From the NCBI RefSeq assembly GCF_900111995.1, contig NZ_FOKF01000005.1, positions 1 to 64,000 of the forward strand: a stretch of 64,000 nucleotides of DNA, written 5' to 3'. Below the pieces are notes generated by a model. That model had not been told where the DNA came from. It saw nothing but the letters and a program-made list of their open reading frames with translations, and made no database searches. Below are positions 2,046-27,436 of the stretch, piece after piece; the stretch's first letter is position 1; each line of letters opens with the position of its first letter. The stretch comes from Collimonas sp. OK607. GTDB lineage: Bacteria > Pseudomonadota > Gammaproteobacteria > Burkholderiales > Burkholderiaceae_D. Made by a program: the position numbers and the translations under genes.

Positions 2046-3647
2046 ATGGCTGACAACTTATCTGCGGATGTTGTGATTGTCGGTTCCGGTGTCGCCGGCG
2101 CCCTGGTGGCGCATCAACTGGCCCTGTCCGGCGCTTCGGTGCTGGTGCTGGAAGCGGGGCCGCGGCTGGAGCGCTGGCGCATCGTCGAAAATTATCGGAA
2201 TACACCGAGCAAAGACGATTTCATGGTGCCCTATCCGTCCACCAAATATGCACCGCATCCCGAATACACGCCGGAAAATAACTACCTGATCCTCAAGGGC
2301 ACGCATAAATACAATTCGCAATACATCCGCGCGGTAGGCGGCACCACCTGGCACTGGGCCGCAGCCGCCTGGCGCTTCCTGCCCAATGATTTCAAGATGA
2401 AAACGTTATACGGCGTCGGCCGCGACTGGCCCATCAGCTACGACGAACTGGAACCCTACTACTATCGGGCTGAAGTCGAACTGGGCGTATCCGGCCCCAA
2501 CGACGGCACCGATCTCGGCTCGCCGCGCAAGCAACCTTACCCGATGGATCACCTGCCGCTATCCTGGAACGACCAGCGCTTCAGCGCCGTGGTCAACAGT
2601 AACGGCCACAAAGTCGTGTCGGAACCGGTGGCGCGCAACAGCCGCGCCTACGATCAACGGCCTAACTGCTGCGGTAACAACAACTGCATGCCGATCTGTC
2701 CGATCGCCGCTATGTATAGCGGCATCATCCATGTCGAGAAAGCTGAAAAAGCCGGCGCCAAGGTGCTGGCGGACGCCGTGGTTTATCGGATAGAAGTCGA
2801 CGCCAAAGAGCGCATCAGCGCAGTGCACTACAAAGATCCGGAGGGAGTTACCCACAGGGTCACCGGCAAGTACTTCGTGCTGGCAGCGAACGGCATCGAG
2901 ATTCCCAAACTGATGCTGATGTCCACCGACGACAAGCATGGCAACGGCGTGGGCAACAGCTCGGACCAGGTCGGCCGCAACCTGATGGATCATCCCGGCA
3001 CCGGCGTCACCTTCCTTGCCAATGAAGACCTGTGGCCGGGGCGCGGCCCGATAGAAATGACTTCCATCGTCGATATGCGCGATGGCGCTTTCCGCGCCGA
3101 ATATGCTGCCAAGAAGCTGCATTTGAATAATATGGCGCAAACCAATCACGCTGCGCAGACGGCTCTGAAAGACGGTCTGGTCGGCGTCAAACTGAATCAG
3201 GAAATCCGCCGTCGCGCCGCACGTACAGTAAATATCAACAGCTTCCACGATATCCTGCCGGATCCGCAAAACCGCATACGGCCAAGTACGGAAAAGCGCG
3301 ATGCGCTTGGCATTCCGCAGCCGGAGATTACCTATTCGATCAACGATTACGTCAAGAAAAGCGCAGTGCTGACGCACCAGGCCTATGCCAGCATCGCCGC
3401 CATGTTCGGCGGCACGGACATCAAATTCGACGACGATTTCGCACCCAACAATCACATCATGGGCGCCACCATCATGGGCGGCGATCCACGTGATTCGGTG
3501 GTCGATGCCCATTGCCGTTCACACGATCACGAAAACCTGTTCATCGCCAGCGGTTCGGTGATGCCGGTGGCCGGCACGGTGAATTGCACTTTGACGATTG
3601 CCGCGCTGTCTTTACGCATCGCTGATACTTTGAGGACAGTGCTATGA
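2046..3647 (+). CDS. GMC-family FAD dehydrogenase, large subunit (gluconate/sorbitol dehydrogenase type)
   Basis: This is the flavoprotein that oxidises the substrate and passes electrons to the cytochrome subunit. From the ATG at 2046 it has 533 residues. The N-terminus shows the FAD-binding fold VVIVGSGVAGALVAHQLA with the acidic end VLVLEAGP. A Cys-rich stretch, PNCCGNNNCMPICPIAAM, typical of gluconate 2-dehydrogenase alpha chains, lies near residue 207-224. The C-terminal GMC domain ends in SGSVMPVAGTVNCTLTIAAL. An upstream in-frame extension to 1869 overlaps the preceding gene and is rejected because MADNLSADVVIVG is the natural N-terminus. It has no signal peptide, consistent with co-export on the small subunit. 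It overlaps the cytochrome gene by ATGA. Confidence 0.88.
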   Translation: MADNLSADVVIVGSGVAGALVAHQLALSGASVLVLEAGPRLERWRIVENYRNTPSKDDFMVPYPSTKYAPHPEYTPENNYLILKGTHKYNSQYIRAVGGTTWHWAAAAWRFLPNDFKMKTLYGVGRDWPISYDELEPYYYRAEVELGVSGPNDGTDLGSPRKQPYPMDHLPLSWNDQRFSAVVNSNGHKVVSEPVARNSRAYDQRPNCCGNNNCMPICPIAAMYSGIIHVEKAEKAGAKVLADAVVYRIEVDAKERISAVHYKDPEGVTHRVTGKYFVLAANGIEIPKLMLMSTDDKHGNGVGNSSDQVGRNLMDHPGTGVTFLANEDLWPGRGPIEMTSIVDMRDGAFRAEYAAKKLHLNNMAQTNHAAQTALKDGLVGVKLNQEIRRRAARTVNINSFHDILPDPQNRIRPSTEKRDALGIPQPEITYSINDYVKKSAVLTHQAYASIAAMFGGTDIKFDDDFAPNNHIMGATIMGGDPRDSVVDAHCRSHDHENLFIASGSVMPVAGTVNCTLTIAALSLRIADTLRTVL

Positions 3648-23012: not shown

Positions 23013-23150
23013 CGGAACTCGTCAATCAATTTGCCTGTCAGAATTTTTATTCTGTGTAGATGTCTGTTAAGCGTCTGGGTTCTGTAATGAAAATTGTAGA
23101 AATTGCTGCTTCAAGACATTATTTTTGTAGCTGAGAAGCAAGAGGCAAAT

Positions 23151-23351
23151 ATGTACGGCGACGTTGACTGGAGGCATGCGCCGAAAGGCGCGCATTGGTG
23201 GGCAATAGATGCAAGCGGGCACGCCCATTGGTTCATGGAGCCAAATCATAAGCTCAGGACACATTTTTGGTACGCCCAGGAAGTCCATGCCCCGACTTTC
23301 GGCTATTCCGGCGACTGGCGCGAGAGCCTGACCGAACGGCCGGCCAGTTAG
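23151..23351 (+). CDS. Trp-rich microprotein, paralogue 1
   Basis: The 66-residue protein MYGDVDWRHAPKGAHWWAID... has seven Trp and no membrane segment. It is clearly homologous to the product at 26292-26489 along its whole length; shared blocks are DW(R/K)xAPxGAxWWAxDA, AHW(F/Y)M, RTxFW and FGYxGDW...SLxERPA. Proteins of this form occur near phage and island genes in Burkholderiales, but I know no function. The ATG at 23151 has AGAGG upstream and matches the start of the paralogue; the longer frame from 23103 has no such support. Confidence 0.65.
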   Translation: MYGDVDWRHAPKGAHWWAIDASGHAHWFMEPNHKLRTHFWYAQEVHAPTFGYSGDWRESLTERPAS

Positions 23352-23697: not shown

Positions 23698-23934
23698 CTA
23701 CTTCCTTACGCAAATCCTGTACAGGCTCTTTGCCATCTGGATGATCAAGGCAGCCAGCCACGTCATTTTCAATGTCAGGAAAAGAGCCAGGATTGCAATG
23801 CAGATCTTGAGCGTCATGCTGTCGACATGAGCAATGCCAAATTTGCTGCCTCTTAAAATGGCAAACATCATGGGTATGCACAGCAGGCACAGGTAGAGGT
23901 TCTCGTCGCGGAGCAGCCTGGAGAGGTATTTCAT
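23698..23934 (-). CDS. Small membrane protein, paralogue 1
   Basis: The 78-residue protein has two hydrophobic helices (about residues 14-32 and 42-66) and begins MKYLSRLLRDENLYLCLL. It is homologous to the 78-residue product at 25134-25370: shared blocks are MK(Y/H)...LLR(D/E)N.LY...L, FA(I/V)(L/I)(R/K)G and TLK...LLALK.... The two genes sit on either side of the AI-2E-family permease gene and both point left. Function unknown. Confidence 0.6.
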   Translation of the reverse strand: MKYLSRLLRDENLYLCLLCIPMMFAILRGSKFGIAHVDSMTLKICIAILALFLTLKMTWLAALIIQMAKSLYRICVRK

Positions 23935-24035: not shown

Positions 24036-25103
24036 ATGATCCAACGCAAGTCTGGCGAGCCAGAACCCGGCAACAAGAAAATCCAGCAAGCCGCATCGAC
24101 CGCGCTCTACGCGGTGCTCGTCATACTCGCGCTGTGGGTTGTGCGCGATTTCATTCCGGCAGTGGTTTGGGCCGCCGTAATTGCGATAGCGTTGTGGCCT
24201 CTGTTGTTGCGCCTGGAACCGCAGCGTGGATCGCGGGCCCGCGCAACCATCGTCGCTTTATTGCTCACAGCCGCTGTCGCGTTGTTCGTCGTGCTGCCTT
24301 TCGTACTCGTCATTACGCAGGCCGCGCATGAGACGCACGATTTCGTAACCTGGTTCAAGCAGGCGGAAGCCAACGGCATCCCACTGCCTGACCTGATCAA
24401 TCACTTGCCTTTCGGGGCGCAGCAGATCGCAAGCTGGTGGCAAGAAAATCTCGCACGTCCGCTACACGATTCACCGGTAATGAACGGGTTGCATGGTGAA
24501 ACGGCCGTTGCTTTCGGCCGCCATTTTGGCGCGGTCGCCGCGCACGGGCTGATCCTGTTCGGTTTCATGCTGGTCACGCTTTTCGTTATCTTCCTGGCCG
24601 GTCCGCGCATGAGCGAAAACCTGGTCAAGGCAACCCGCCGCGCTTTTGGCGACGACGGCGCGCTGATCGCAAGCCAGATGACGGCAGCTGTGCGCGGCAC
24701 CGTCGCCGGCCTGGTGGTGGTCGGCATCGGCGAAGGTGCGCTGCTGGGTATCGCCTACGCGATAGCCGGTGTGCCACATGCGACGCTACTTGGCTTGTTG
24801 ACGGCGATTGCCGCCATGCTGCCGTTTTGCGCGCCGATCATTTTTTGCGGAGCCGCTCTGTGGTTGTTTGTGCAGGGTGCAACCGTCGGCGCCGTCAGCG
24901 TCCTCATATTCGGGTTTGTCGTCGTGCTGATTGCCGAACATCTGGTGCGACCGCTGCTGATCGGCAGCTCGACGCGCCTGCCGTTCCTGCTGGTTCTGTT
25001 CGGTATTCTCGGCGGCGCGCAGACGTTCGGATTGCTCGGCCTGTTCATCGGTCCTGCGTTGATGACGGTGCTGATGGTGTTGTGGCGCGATTGGGTGAGG
25101 TAA
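24036..25103 (+). CDS. AI-2E-family transporter (YdiK-like permease)
   Basis: The 355-residue integral membrane protein has about eight hydrophobic segments, with the long soluble loop between segments 3 and 4 (ETHDFVTWFKQAEANG...) and the C-terminal block LVRPLLIGSSTRLPFLLVLFG found in the AI-2E exporter/PerM family. Members export autoinducer-2 or act in Na+/H+ exchange; the substrate cannot be inferred here. It is flanked by two paralogous small membrane proteins on the opposite strand. The ATG at 24036 lacks a strong ribosome-binding site. Confidence 0.85.
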   Translation: MIQRKSGEPEPGNKKIQQAASTALYAVLVILALWVVRDFIPAVVWAAVIAIALWPLLLRLEPQRGSRARATIVALLLTAAVALFVVLPFVLVITQAAHETHDFVTWFKQAEANGIPLPDLINHLPFGAQQIASWWQENLARPLHDSPVMNGLHGETAVAFGRHFGAVAAHGLILFGFMLVTLFVIFLAGPRMSENLVKATRRAFGDDGALIASQMTAAVRGTVAGLVVVGIGEGALLGIAYAIAGVPHATLLGLLTAIAAMLPFCAPIIFCGAALWLFVQGATVGAVSVLIFGFVVVLIAEHLVRPLLIGSSTRLPFLLVLFGILGGAQTFGLLGLFIGPALMTVLMVLWRDWVR

Positions 25104-25133
25104 GCCGGTTCAGGCTGGTAATCGAAAATCGCG

Positions 25134-25370
25134 TTATTTCAGCAGGAGGGGCCTGGACTGACGCTTTGCCCTGTTGGCAAACCATGCAGTCACCAGCAGT
25201 ATTTTCAGGGCAAGTAAAAGACCCACTGCCACAACGCCAAGCTTAAGCGTCGCGCCAATGACGTAGGCAATTCCGACGGTGATACCTTTTATCACGGCAA
25301 ATATCGCGAGTACACCCAGCAACGCCGCGTAGAGGGGATTTTCGCGAAGAAAGGTGGAGAAGTGTTTCAT
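25134..25370 (-). CDS. Small membrane protein, paralogue 2
   Basis: From the ATG at 25370 the protein is 78 residues, MKHFSTFLRENPLYAALLG..., with two hydrophobic helices and a basic C-terminus (NRAKRQSRPLLLK). It matches the product of 23698-23934 over its full length. An upstream in-frame ATG at 25382 would add four residues; the shorter start aligns with the paralogue. It is convergent with the AI-2E-family gene, 30 bases from its stop. Confidence 0.62.
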   Translation of the reverse strand: MKHFSTFLRENPLYAALLGVLAIFAVIKGITVGIAYVIGATLKLGVVAVGLLLALKILLVTAWFANRAKRQSRPLLLK

Positions 25371-25513
25371 ATGCGGTTTCATATGCGTCTCGGTTCGACG
25401 TTATAGGCAATGTACACCTTTGATTTGTCGTTGAAAATAATTTCTGCGAGTTTGTGAATCGGCTTTATTATTATTTTGTCATTATCTCATGCGTTTGCAA
25501 TAAACAAAAAAAA

Positions 25514-25634
25514 GCCCGCCAGCCTTTCGGCAGCGGGCTAAGTCCAAAACTTAGGGAGATTTGGAGGAGACCAAGACAATATTGTGCCCACCGGCCAATT
25601 TTCAAGACCTTTTGAGTTATTTACTATTTATATA
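25514..25634 (-). ncRNA. Candidate small RNA A with anti-Shine-Dalgarno motif
   Basis: Read on the minus strand, this stretch contains TCTCCTCC and then TCTCCC, both complementary to Shine-Dalgarno sequences. A perfect 6-base stem CTAAGT/ACTTAG (25538-25554) follows, and then a terminator hairpin GCCCGC...GCGGGC with GAAA loop (25514-25538) running into eight T. About 100 bases are nearly identical to candidate B at 25968-26080. It starts just after the dodecin stop codon (25649), so it may be cut from the dodecin mRNA 3' end or have its own promoter (a TATAAAT box lies near 25625-25635). Confidence 0.65.
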
Positions 25635-25648
25635 TGGCAATCGCCCGG

Positions 25649-25867
25649 TCAGGGCGCGCCGTCCAAAAGTCTGAAGCCGACTTTGAGCGTGACCTGAAAG
25701 TGAGCGACCTTGCCGTCAGCTACATGTCCCCGGGTTCCAATGACTTCAAACCAGTCAATGTGTTTTACCGTAAGTGCGGCCTTGGAAATCGCGTTCTGGA
25801 TGGCGTCGTCAGTGCCAATCGTGGACGATCCGACGAGTTCGACTATCTTGTAAGTATGTGCGGACAT
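25649..25867 (-). CDS. Dodecin, flavin-binding dodecameric protein
   Basis: The 72-residue protein MSAHTYKIVELVGSSTIGTDD matches dodecin closely: the conserved block DAIQNAISKAALTVKHIDWFEV contains the Trp that stacks on the flavin isoalloxazine ring, and the tail HFQVTLKVGFRL is the last strand. Dodecins form 12-mers that store or buffer riboflavin/FMN or CoA in the cytosol. Candidate small RNAs of the same family lie on both sides on the same strand. Confidence 0.92.
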   Translation of the reverse strand: MSAHTYKIVELVGSSTIGTDDAIQNAISKAALTVKHIDWFEVIGTRGHVADGKVAHFQVTLKVGFRLLDGAP

Positions 25868-25967
25868 ACGAATCTCCTTTGTTAATTACTGTTTTAAGGA
25901 AGATGCACGTGCCCGTTCACTTTACTCCTGCTGCGCAGTAAAGCAATCCGCGATGAACCAAAAAAAA

Positions 25968-26080
25968 GCCCGCCAACCTTTCGGTTGCGGGCTAAGTCCA
26001 AAACTTAGGGAGAGTTGGAGGAGACCAAATCAATATTGTGTCCCTCAACCGATTTTCAATACCCTTTTAAGCTATTTATA
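25968..26080 (-). ncRNA. Candidate small RNA B with anti-Shine-Dalgarno motif
   Basis: This is the sibling of candidate A, lying upstream of dodecin on the same strand. It has the same single-stranded TCTCCTCC and CTCTCC tracts, the CTAAGT/ACTTAG stem and a terminator GCCCGCAACC-GAAA-GGTT(G)GCGGGC followed by at least seven T (25961-25967). The upper stem changes from G-C in copy A to A-U here, a compensatory change that supports a folded RNA. An extended -10 box, TGATATAAAT on the minus strand near 26076-26085, could start it. The rest of the 25868-26291 gap holds the island end. Confidence 0.68.
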
Positions 26081-26088
26081 TCAGTGCC

Positions 26089-26104
26089 TATTTCGATACA
26101 GAAG
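26089..26104 (-). other. Candidate left attachment core
   Basis: On the minus strand this reads TTCTGTATCGAAATA, similar to the mnmE 3' end at 43887-43904 (shared TGTATCG) and to the TTCTGTAT core described for SGI1-type integration in trmE. Only about 11 of 15 positions match the local mnmE end, so the call is tentative. Confidence 0.4.
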
Positions 26105-26160
26105 CTAGTGAGCATCTTGAAAGCCTTTGCCATATTGGGTTTTTGAAGATCATCTTGAAA

Positions 26161-26187
26161 TTGTGTACTTACCTGTGTACTTAAAAC
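26161..26187 (+). repeat. Left 27-bp island end repeat with paired GTGTACT sites
   Basis: Two GTGTACT heptamers (26163-26169 and 26175-26181) are 12 bases apart and followed by TAAAAC. The unit matches 43753-43779 at 24 of 27 positions in the same orientation. The 12-base spacing fits integrase arm-type binding sites; alternatively the repeats themselves are the attachment duplication. Confidence 0.7.
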
Positions 26188-26291
26188 ATAAACTGCATCG
26201 AGTTATCCACAGGGCGTAAAAAACCACTGAAGCGGTTTGACGTTGCCATATCGCAAAGGCTGACTAGAATGGAGCGAGGGAGGGTGATGCC

Positions 26292-26489
26292 ATGCCGACA
26301 GAGATCGACTGGAAGAAAGCGCCGACGGGCGCTAGGTGGTGGGCGATGGATGCCGACCGGGATGCGCACTGGTACATGGCGCCGGACTTCATTGCCAGGA
26401 CTAATTTCTGGATGGTAGAGGAAAGACCGGCGCCGTCATTTGGCTACGAAGGGGATTGGGATGTGAGCCTGGTCGAGCGACCGGCGTAA
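26292..26489 (+). CDS. Trp-rich microprotein, paralogue 2
   Basis: The 65-residue protein MPTEIDWKKAPTGARWWAMD... is full-length homologous to the product of 23151-23351 (about half of the residues identical by eye). It has six Trp, is acidic and soluble. It lies just inside the predicted left end of the island, so one paralogue is on the chromosome and the other on the mobile element. A hairpin terminator follows at once. Function unknown. Confidence 0.65.
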   Translation: MPTEIDWKKAPTGARWWAMDADRDAHWYMAPDFIARTNFWMVEERPAPSFGYEGDWDVSLVERPA

Positions 26490-26492
26490 AAA

Positions 26493-26514
26493 AGCCCACC
26501 GCGTAGGGTGGGCT
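26493..26514. terminator. Hairpin terminator between convergent genes
   Basis: AGCCCACC and GGTGGGCT pair around GCGTAG. On the minus strand it runs into six T, so it ends the transcript of the 302-residue gene; it can also slow plus-strand transcription from the microprotein gene. Confidence 0.75.
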
Positions 26515-26527
26515 GGATAGTCGTGAT

Positions 26528-27436
26528 TTATAGGCCAGGCAGCGGTATTTGTCTTGCTGATGTCCGATGCTCTATTACCCGGACTACCTCGTATTCTGTC
26601 TTCGCACCAGATGTGGTTTGCCATTGCAAGACGCGCACATCACATACTAAAACGTCACCTTTTGCGAAAGCAATCTGATTCCGATCTACTTTGCTCAAAA
26701 ATTCAATATCGGTAATTGTTGCGTGGATTGTCGCGGCGCCGTCATACAACCGCCATTTATTATCTTCTTTGAAGGCAAGCGAGACGATTGAAAATGCCAT
26801 TTTTCGGACATCGTCTAGTAGCAATTCATCTGTTGGCACAGGGGCGACAAACCAACTTATTTCATCTGCTGTTACTGTTTCCACAATTTCACTGTCTGTG
26901 CCAGCCGCGAATGTATCGATGCCACTCCTAGAAAGCGGCTCCAAAACTTTGCTTGTCGCGTTGCGTACTGAAACATCCCTTAGTAGCACAAGGACACTTA
27001 ATTCAATAGTTAGCTGATCGCCATCAACGTAAATCACTGCAGAATCTTCGGACGTTTCTACCCGCTCAATCTTTCTGCCCTTGATCCATTTTAGGACCGC
27101 GAACAGTCCAGGCTTTGCGACTTTTTTAGAGACAAAGCCGAGTGCGCCAAGAATTGCTAAGGAGTTTGCAATCGCAGCTGCGTTGTCTCCTGCGAATATG
27201 TCGCGCACTCGAGATAGAAGACTGGTTGCTAGATTGAAATCAATTCCAAAGCTGCCGGTTTTAAAGCTTCCTTTTACGCTCACCTGTGGCTTGATCTGAT
27301 CGCCGTATAGCGCTGTAGTTGCCGCTTCTAGAAGGTCCCCTATCGACAATAAGGCGGGTGCGAGCTCGCGAACATCCATTTCAGATGTTTCAAGTGCCGG
27401 ACCATCATAAGTAATTCGAAAAGTAGACATATCCAC
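26528..27436 (-). CDS. Hypothetical island protein, 302 residues
   Basis: The protein starts at GTG 27436 (GGGAG 11 bases upstream) or ATG 27430 (MSTFRITYDGPALETSEMD). A weakly hydrophobic Ala/Leu-rich stretch (AAAIANSLAILGALGFVSKK, about residues 85-105) could be one membrane or packed helix, followed by the basic KWIKGRKIERVE. The C-terminal half is a mixed alpha/beta domain with no catalytic motif that I recognise. I cannot assign a family. The gene is A+T-richer by eye than the flanking chromosome and stands alone near the left island end. It is a candidate for an undescribed cargo function. Confidence 0.7.
   Translation of the reverse strand: MDMSTFRITYDGPALETSEMDVRELAPALLSIGDLLEAATTALYGDQIKPQVSVKGSFKTGSFGIDFNLATSLLSRVRDIFAGDNAAAIANSLAILGALGFVSKKVAKPGLFAVLKWIKGRKIERVETSEDSAVIYVDGDQLTIELSVLVLLRDVSVRNATSKVLEPLSRSGIDTFAAGTDSEIVETVTADEISWFVAPVPTDELLLDDVRKMAFSIVSLAFKEDNKWRLYDGAATIHATITDIEFLSKVDRNQIAFAKGDVLVCDVRVLQWQTTSGAKTEYEVVRVIEHRTSARQIPLPGL

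What the first reader, a model, noticed from the sequence alone, without database searches (positions are those of the whole stretch)
25514..26080. Twin candidate small RNAs with anti-Shine-Dalgarno tracts flank dodecin
Two ~100-base stretches on the minus strand, on either side of the dodecin gene, are nearly identical. Each has TCTCCTCC and (T)CTCTCC/TCTCCC tracts, a 6-base stem CTAAGT/ACTTAG and a strong terminator hairpin with GAAA loop and a run of T. The upper stem differs by a compensatory pair (G-C versus A-U), evidence for selection on structure. The exposed CU-rich tracts could pair with ribosome-binding sites of many mRNAs, as known for other anti-SD RNAs such as the CcsR/cuckoo type in alphaproteobacteria. 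Association with a flavin-storage gene suggests a link to flavin or oxidative state.
Basis: partly seen in the sequence, partly recalled or inferred. Interest (0 to 1): 0.75.

Follow-up and report, generated by a model that had tools for sequence, protein, structure and literature searches.

The report
Two copies of known toxic-sRNA family
The twin minus-strand elements beside a dodecin gene look like real small-RNA genes, but they belong to an already catalogued and partly studied beta-proteobacterial family thought to damp nutrient-uptake genes, and the dodecin gene looks like a chance neighbour.

Summary
A 112-nt block occurs twice on the minus strand, 87% identical, on either side of a dodecin gene. 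Each copy has a sigma70-like promoter, a UCUCCUCC tract, a second CU-rich tract and a GAAA-capped terminator. The interpretation needs correcting. Both copies match Rfam RF02278, "Betaproteobacteria toxic sRNA", the double-hairpin RNAs of Burkholderia cenocepacia (ncS03/05/27/62); S17 of Bordetella pertussis is a published homologue. Copy 1 scores 51.6 bits (cut-off 50), copy 2 47.1.

The host is a Collimonas. Its genome has 11 clear copies, and 14 of the 15 genus genomes searched, its own included, have 9-14 matches. Covariation over 53 members supports a 5' hairpin (UCCNN/NNGGA) and the terminator.

The dodecin link looks incidental. Nine genus genomes lack dodecin; 8 still have this sRNA type, 6 of them next to matched neighbour genes. 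None of 76 dodecin loci outside Collimonas has the sRNA in the flanks held, and dodecin is not a preferred predicted target. Sites complementary to the tract lie before transporter ORFs (6 of 9), as published for relatives. New members of a known kind; low interest.

The parts
25506..25572 (-). sRNA copy 1, RF02278 (Betaproteobacteria toxic sRNA), downstream of dodecin
   Evidence: cmscan 51.6 bits, gathering 50, E 5.1e-9; own model R1 69.0 bits (this copy was among the 53 model rows)
25960..26026 (-). sRNA copy 2, RF02278, upstream of dodecin
   Evidence: cmscan 47.1 bits, just under gathering 50, E 7.2e-8; own model R1 74.3 bits (this copy was among the 53 model rows)
25578..25605 (-). sigma70-like promoter of copy 1: TTGAAA, 16 nt, AATATT
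   Evidence: 3 such sites in the 801-base stretch, 1.3 expected; TTGAAA and CAATAT in 17 of 17 copies, at constant spacing in 16; start of transcription inferred, about 25571-25573
26032..26059 (-). sigma70-like promoter of copy 2: TTGAAA, 16 nt, AATATT
   Evidence: start of transcription inferred, about 26025-26027
25563..25570 (-). UCUCCUCC anti-Shine-Dalgarno tract, copy 1; its last UCC forms the 5' side of hairpin 1
   Evidence: first seven of its eight bases invariant in 53 of 53 aligned members
26017..26024 (-). UCUCCUCC anti-Shine-Dalgarno tract, copy 2
25543..25565 (-). hairpin 1 of copy 1 (UCCAA/UUGGA) with second CU-rich tract UCUCCC inside it
   Evidence: helix 99.6% paired over 53 members, 3 pairs with two-sided changes; fold
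25997..26019 (-). hairpin 1 of copy 2 with CUCUCCC inside it
   Evidence: formed in the 67-nt fold of copy 2, but not in the fold with five more 5' bases
25506..25538 (-). rho-independent terminator of copy 1, GAAA loop, T run
25960..25992 (-). rho-independent terminator of copy 2, GAAA loop, T run
   Evidence: not listed by the simple terminator scan, which found only the copy 1 site
25649..25867 (-). dodecin gene between the copies; a neighbour, not judged part of the RNA system
   Evidence: PF07311, E 5.7e-29

Best explanation
Two independently transcribed, roughly 65-nt trans-acting sRNAs of the RF02278 double-hairpin family. Each is made from its own promoter and ends at its own terminator. 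The exposed 5' UCUCC tract, and the CU-rich tract inside hairpin 1, pair with Shine-Dalgarno regions of many mRNAs and block ribosome binding, mostly on nutrient-uptake genes. They are two of at least 11 copies in this Collimonas genome. In part of the genus this position holds one copy and no dodecin; in four species it holds two copies with dodecin between them. Shown here: family match, promoter and terminator conservation, covarying hairpins, copy number, distribution in the genus, and complementary sites before transporter ORFs. Inferred: transcription in this strain, Hfq use, repression, that the one-copy state is the older one, and a nutrient-limitation role carried over from published relatives.
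For: Rfam matches. Promoter-to-terminator conservation in 17 copies. Covariation of hairpin 1 and terminator: 97.3% of cells paired against 86.4% in shuffles, 0 of 500 shuffles reaching it, 23-49% when slid; 6 pairs with two-sided change, reached by 3 of 500 shuffles. GGAGGAGA-N3-9-ATG occurs 12 times in the genome, the reversed pattern 3 times. Of the 12 hits, 9 open an ORF of 60 aa or more, and 6 of those 9 are transport proteins: three periplasmic binding proteins, a porin, a dicarboxylate symporter (Pfam) and CstA (Pfam; that it is a transporter is recalled). Six ORFs behind the canonical AAGGAGGT gave 0; two-sided Fisher p 0.028. The GGAGGAGA site at one binding-protein gene is kept in 10 of 14 genus orthologues. 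Published relatives: dRNA-Seq transcripts, and slower growth on overexpression of ncS27 (PMC5688073, passages seen); transporter-rich targets and direct repression of BP2158 for S17S (PMC11722255, passages and abstract part seen); four copies in H. seropedicae (PMC7011215, passages seen).
Against: No transcript data for this strain. The target test is small and was framed after seeing the first hits; 4 of 14 orthologues lack the GGAGGAGA site. In the stricter genus-wide pattern TGGAGGAGAC-N2-8-ATG (18 hits, 9 of 15 genomes), 6 of 18 open no ORF of 60 aa, 2 of these being the complement of sRNA genes themselves, and the hit recurring in most genomes (4) lies before an alcohol dehydrogenase-like gene, not a transporter; of 5 further proteins scanned 3 are transport-related. 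The count of further pair types did not exceed shuffles (10 against 10.9). With five more 5' bases the minimum-energy fold of copy 2 lacks hairpin 1. Binding-protein genes may simply favour strong ribosome-binding sites. [quoted passage not shown] coli, so the family name may not describe function.
Confidence: 0.93

Rival explanations
1. A dodecin-linked regulatory module: the two RNAs regulate dodecin or respond to flavin or oxidative state.
For: In the 4 twin-copy Collimonas genomes the two copies flank dodecin directly. The dodecin RBS contains GGAGAUU, which can pair 7 nt with copy 1 (read).
Against: 8 of 9 dodecin-free genus genomes have this sRNA type, 6 of them beside matched neighbour genes. 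0 of 76 dodecin loci outside Collimonas carry it in the flanks held. Dodecin ranks 36 of 65 (copy 1) and 37 of 65 (copy 2) among window starts by duplex energy. G003 has dodecin with one copy only, in the 8 kb fetched.
Confidence: 0.04
2. The 112-nt repeats are mainly a recombination product: duplicated flanks of a dodecin insertion or excision cassette, with copy 2 a passenger without function.
For: Dodecin and the flanking pair are confined to part of the genus. A one-copy, dodecin-free state is seen beside matched neighbour genes in 6 genomes. Direct repeats would allow loop-out (inference).
Against: Both copies keep promoter, tract, hairpin and terminator in four species while their surroundings diverge. 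The upper terminator stem differs between copy 1 and copy 2 in the same way in all four. Repeat origin and RNA function do not exclude each other.
Confidence: 0.08
3. The stretches are only terminators with CU-rich leaders, for example the 3' end of dodecin and of a gene further upstream, without sRNA function.
For: Copy 1 lies in the 3' region of dodecin on the same strand.
Against: Conserved promoter-like sites directly upstream of both copies, family-wide covariation of hairpin 1, 9-14 matches in 14 of 15 genus genomes, and published short primary transcripts of homologues.
Confidence: 0.03

Closest known systems
RF02278 Betaproteobacteria toxic sRNA / double-hairpin RNAs ncS03, ncS05, ncS27, ncS62 of Burkholderia cenocepacia
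   Same: Sequence, length, two hairpins, 5' CU-rich tract plus CU-rich stretch inside hairpin 1, terminator, several genomic copies.
   Different: Burkholderia genomes are reported to hold 3-5, not in tandem; here at least 11, including this pair 454 nt apart. Copy 2 falls just under the Rfam cut-off.
S17 / S17S of Bordetella pertussis
   Same: Described as homologous to the RF02278 RNAs in its 5' region; pairs with RBS regions of many genes, transporters among them.
   Different: S17S is cut from a longer transcript and no promoter was seen at its start; here a promoter-like site sits directly before the RNA.
NmsRA/NmsRB (NgncR_162/163, RcoF) of Neisseria
   Same: Two related RNAs side by side, CU-rich tracts against RBS sites; weak covariance-model similarity. 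The likeness to the double-hairpin RNAs was already noted in PMC5688073.
   Different: 33.7 and 29.6 bits against a cut-off of 52; apart from this pair and a cluster on contig C67 the copies here are dispersed.
Alphaproteobacterial CcsR/cuckoo anti-SD RNAs
   Same: General idea of CU-rich anti-SD RNAs in several copies (recalled).
   Different: No such family reached its cut-off here; SorY and suhB/mmgR appeared only far below theirs.

Membership tests
RF02278 Betaproteobacteria toxic sRNA | Covariance-model score at or above gathering (50 bits), copy 1 | tested here: met
   51.6 bits, whole model matched
RF02278 Betaproteobacteria toxic sRNA | Covariance-model score at or above gathering (50 bits), copy 2 | tested here: not met
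   47.1 bits, E 7.2e-8, whole model matched. Filed with the family because it is 87% identical to copy 1 over 112 nt; the curated cut-off itself is missed by 2.9 bits
RF02278 Betaproteobacteria toxic sRNA | Two hairpins with conserved pairing | tested here: met
   97.3% of cells paired over 53 members, 0 of 500 shuffles as high; 6 pairs with two-sided change, 3 of 500 shuffles as high
RF02278 Betaproteobacteria toxic sRNA | 5' CU-rich anti-SD tract | tested here: met
   GUCUCCUC invariant in 53 of 53 aligned rows
RF02278 Betaproteobacteria toxic sRNA | Short transcript; growth inhibition when cloned in E. coli | not testable with these tools
   No expression data for this strain; reported for B. 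cenocepacia
NmsRB (RF02877) | Score at or above gathering (52 bits) | tested here: not met
   33.7 and 29.6 bits
CcsR/cuckoo anti-SD RNAs | Match to a catalogued alphaproteobacterial family | tested here: inconclusive
   Only RF02278 reached its cut-off over the window; I did not check whether CcsR itself has an Rfam model

The most novel reading that the evidence does not exclude
Collimonas and some relatives have expanded the double-hairpin RNA into a set of 9-14 (elsewhere in the family up to 21) paralogues. They share the same constant anti-SD seed but have several conserved, different promoter types. Many signals would then feed one common brake on nutrient uptake. The dodecin pair would be a lineage-specific duplication that adds dosage, or a recombination-prone cassette carrying dodecin in and out.
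Probability: 0.3. Interest if true: 0.45.

Novelty: new member of a known kind. Interest (0 to 1): 0.2.

Why it matters
It settles the locus as members of a named family with experimental literature, so no new RNA class should be claimed. It adds three modest points: a high copy number in Collimonas, covariation support for the 5' hairpin, and complementary sites before transporter genes that fit the published role. It also shows that a suggestive gene neighbour (dodecin) can be coincidental.

Tried and rejected
Dodecin/flavin link: rejected on distribution and target ranking. CUAAGU/ACUUAG stem: 52.4% of cells paired over 53 members, equal to the shuffled mean 52.4%. Tree of the 17 copies to find the parent of the pair: weak support, one long branch, no answer. 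Papers on a dodecin-sRNA link: one search of 4 terms with at least 3 present; 229 found, 10 listed, and none of those 10 holds the word dodecin; the other 219 were not seen. Papers on such RNAs in Collimonas: 8 found and listed; the 4 that hold the word Collimonas (1-2 times) do not hold 'toxic small RNA'. The founding paper (Kimelman 2012) is not held, so it is known to me only through citing papers. Orthologues of the dicarboxylate symporter were sought, but only one other genus genome had a close one (76%), so its site conservation was not analysed.

Rows dropped: of 75 loci L001-L075, 2 gave no extraction and 8 were misplaced or at the distance limit (five of these are a paralogue type that my rule for an unbroken T run missed, one is a weak match, two lie near contig ends); 9 were duplicates; of the 56 distinct rows left, 3 weak ones (L013, L014, L017) were left out by judgement, giving 53. 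This favours well-formed members. Model R1 holds 10 of the window genome's 11 copies, so its scores on them are partly by construction. Of 12 GGAGGAGA hits, 3 opened no ORF of 60 aa, and one of the 9 others (109 aa, no Pfam match) is doubtful. Of 7 AAGGAGGT hits, 6 gave an ORF of 60 aa or more, one of just 60 aa without Pfam match, and one was not extracted. From the 18 genus-wide hits I scanned 5 proteins not yet seen, one per gene. The loci were chosen by me from the hit table, with two candidates each for G002, G009 and G010.

Full report
What is there. On the minus strand, a 112-nt block occurs at 25502-25613 and again at 25956-26067, 87% identical. Between them lies a dodecin gene, 25649-25867, also minus (PF07311, E 5.7e-29). 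Read 5' to 3', each copy has TTGAAA, 16 nt, AATATT, then a few bases, then GGUCUCCUCC, a hairpin with a CU-rich stretch inside, and a GC-rich hairpin with a GAAA loop followed by eight T. The 67-nt RNAs fold better than shuffled sequences, z -3.26 and -2.72. With five more 5' bases copy 1 keeps hairpin 1, but the minimum-energy fold of copy 2 loses it.

What family. An Rfam scan of the window gives one match over cut-off, RF02278 Betaproteobacteria toxic sRNA at 25506-25572 (51.6 bits, cut-off 50). A permissive scan of 25000-26800 gives the second copy at 25960-26026, 47.1 bits, E 7.2e-8, just under the cut-off. A model built from 53 members gives 69.0 and 74.3 bits; both copies were among those 53, so these scores are partly by construction. 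The next family, Neisseria NmsRb, reaches 33.7 bits against a cut-off of 52.

How many. The window's genome has 17 matches at E up to 1, of which 9 pass the cut-off and 11 score 37 bits or more. The control genomes also ring at E up to 1 in 11 of 14, none over the cut-off, so only the strong matches count. The new model finds the same 11 at 52 bits or more and three weaker ones. In the genus, 14 of 15 genomes (own included) have 9-14 matches at E up to 0.001, some of them under the cut-off; no control genome rings at that level; the exception is a 1.7-Mb genome. In a sample of 145 genomes of the family, 134 have matches at E up to 0.001 and 126 have one over the cut-off; the most in one genome is 21. 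The genus is judged to be Collimonas from four named Collimonas dodecin records whose contig lengths equal those of G001, G010, G013 and G014.

Structure. On 53 distinct members, hairpin 1 (UCCNN with NNGGA) plus the terminator stem are paired in 97.3% of cells; shuffles average 86.4% and none of 500 reaches it. Six pairs change on both sides (3 of 500 shuffles as high), the number of further pair types does not exceed shuffles (10 against 10.9), and sliding the partner drops pairing to 23-49%. In the 17 copies of this subtype its letters hardly vary, so there it is neither supported nor refuted. So the last UCC of the UCUCCUCC tract is in a stem, and the free parts are the 5' UCUCC and the CU-rich stretch inside hairpin 1.

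Dodecin. In the genus, 6 of 15 genomes have dodecin at E up to 1e-5. Four of them (G000, G001, G013, G014) have the two copies around it. G003 has dodecin and one copy in the 8 kb fetched. In G010 the contig ends inside the promoter of the downstream copy and no second copy was found, so its state is undecided. Of the nine genomes without dodecin, eight (G002, G004-G009, G012) have a copy of this type in the stretch fetched. In six of them (G002, G004, G005, G006, G008, G009) a neighbouring gene of the window locus is found beside it; in G007 and G012 none was matched, so their position is open. G007 and G012 also have other copies of similar type elsewhere. G011 has neither. G006 is 86% complete, so its lack of dodecin is less sure. 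Among 80 named dodecin loci (the best 80 of 160 relatives), the sRNA occurs in 3, all Collimonas and the same genomes as G001, G013 and G014; the fourth Collimonas locus is cut by a contig end; 0 of the other 76 has it within the flanks held, at most 2.5 kb and in some loci less. By duplex energy the dodecin start ranks 36 of 65 for copy 1 and 37 of 65 for copy 2 among window ORF starts, a rough test without accessibility and with heuristic starts. The link to flavin is therefore not supported.

Selection on the RNA gene. In 17 copies from 13 Collimonas genomes, TTGAAA and CAATAT are invariant. From 25573 to 25514 identity averages 0.91-0.99 per ten bases; the stretch with the T run has 0.86, the promoter region 0.73-0.82, and the outer flanks 0.33-0.54. 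Copy 1 reads AAAUCUCCC with UGCC/GGCU in all four twin genomes. Copy 2 has AACC/GGUU in all four, and AACUCUCCC in two. This suggests that the duplication is older than those four species. A tree of the copies was too weak to show which came first.

Likely mechanism. The constant 5' region is complementary to strong ribosome-binding sites. GGAGGAGA-N3-9-ATG occurs 12 times in the genome, the reversed pattern 3 times; the canonical AAGGAGGT version occurs 7 times against 6. Of the 12 hits, 9 open an ORF of at least 60 aa, and 6 of the 9 are transport proteins: three periplasmic binding proteins, a porin, a sodium:dicarboxylate symporter and CstA (Pfam; CstA as transporter is recalled). Of 6 ORFs behind AAGGAGGT none is a transporter; Fisher two-sided p 0.028, post hoc and small. 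A longer pattern over the genus gave 18 hits in 9 of 15 genomes. Six of the 18 open no ORF of 60 aa, two of these being the complement of sRNA genes. Of five further proteins scanned, three are transport-related (an OprD-type porin and two binding proteins), one is an alcohol dehydrogenase-like protein found in four genomes, and one is FAD-binding. GGAGGAGA before the binding-protein gene L183 is kept in 10 of 14 orthologues. This agrees with published work: ncS27 overexpression attenuates growth and predicted targets of the double-hairpin RNAs cluster at RBS regions, with transport and metabolism among the predicted roles (PMC5688073, passages); candidate S17S targets include 32 transporter-related genes or operons, and S17S directly represses BP2158 (PMC11722255, passages). 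That the RNA is expressed and represses in Collimonas is inferred.

Conclusion. They are two new members of a known family; the copy number in Collimonas is a modest extension of the 3-5 copies reported for Burkholderia.

Noticed in passing
L001, L003, L004, L008 (G000 contigs C62, C31, C67) and many of the genus loci L018-L045: Other paralogues have a different conserved upstream region: a GAATATC-N-G-TAT-like motif about 45-60 nt before the RNA, an element like AAGCA(G/T)AC and a TATAGT-like -10. Promoter types differ between paralogue groups (judged by eye).
   Followed up: partly
G000:C67:123367-130020: Cluster of four RF02278 copies, plus one weak match, within 7 kb; clusters of similar spacing in several genus genomes.
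   Followed up: no
window 23103-23351 (+) and 26292-26489 (+); 23698-23934 (-) and 25134-25382 (-): Two pairs of look-alike small ORFs without Pfam match on either side of the AI-2E-type transporter gene; looks like a local duplication (likeness judged by eye; Pfam).
   Followed up: no
G000:C74:137754-137821 (-), L012: A decayed-looking copy with a broken anti-SD tract, 29.3 bits with Rfam and 34.9 with the new model.
   Followed up: no
L163 (G013), positions 3082-3576: The AI-2E-type transporter gene beside the sRNA pair seems to have lost an inner part in this genome (two matched pieces only).
   Followed up: no
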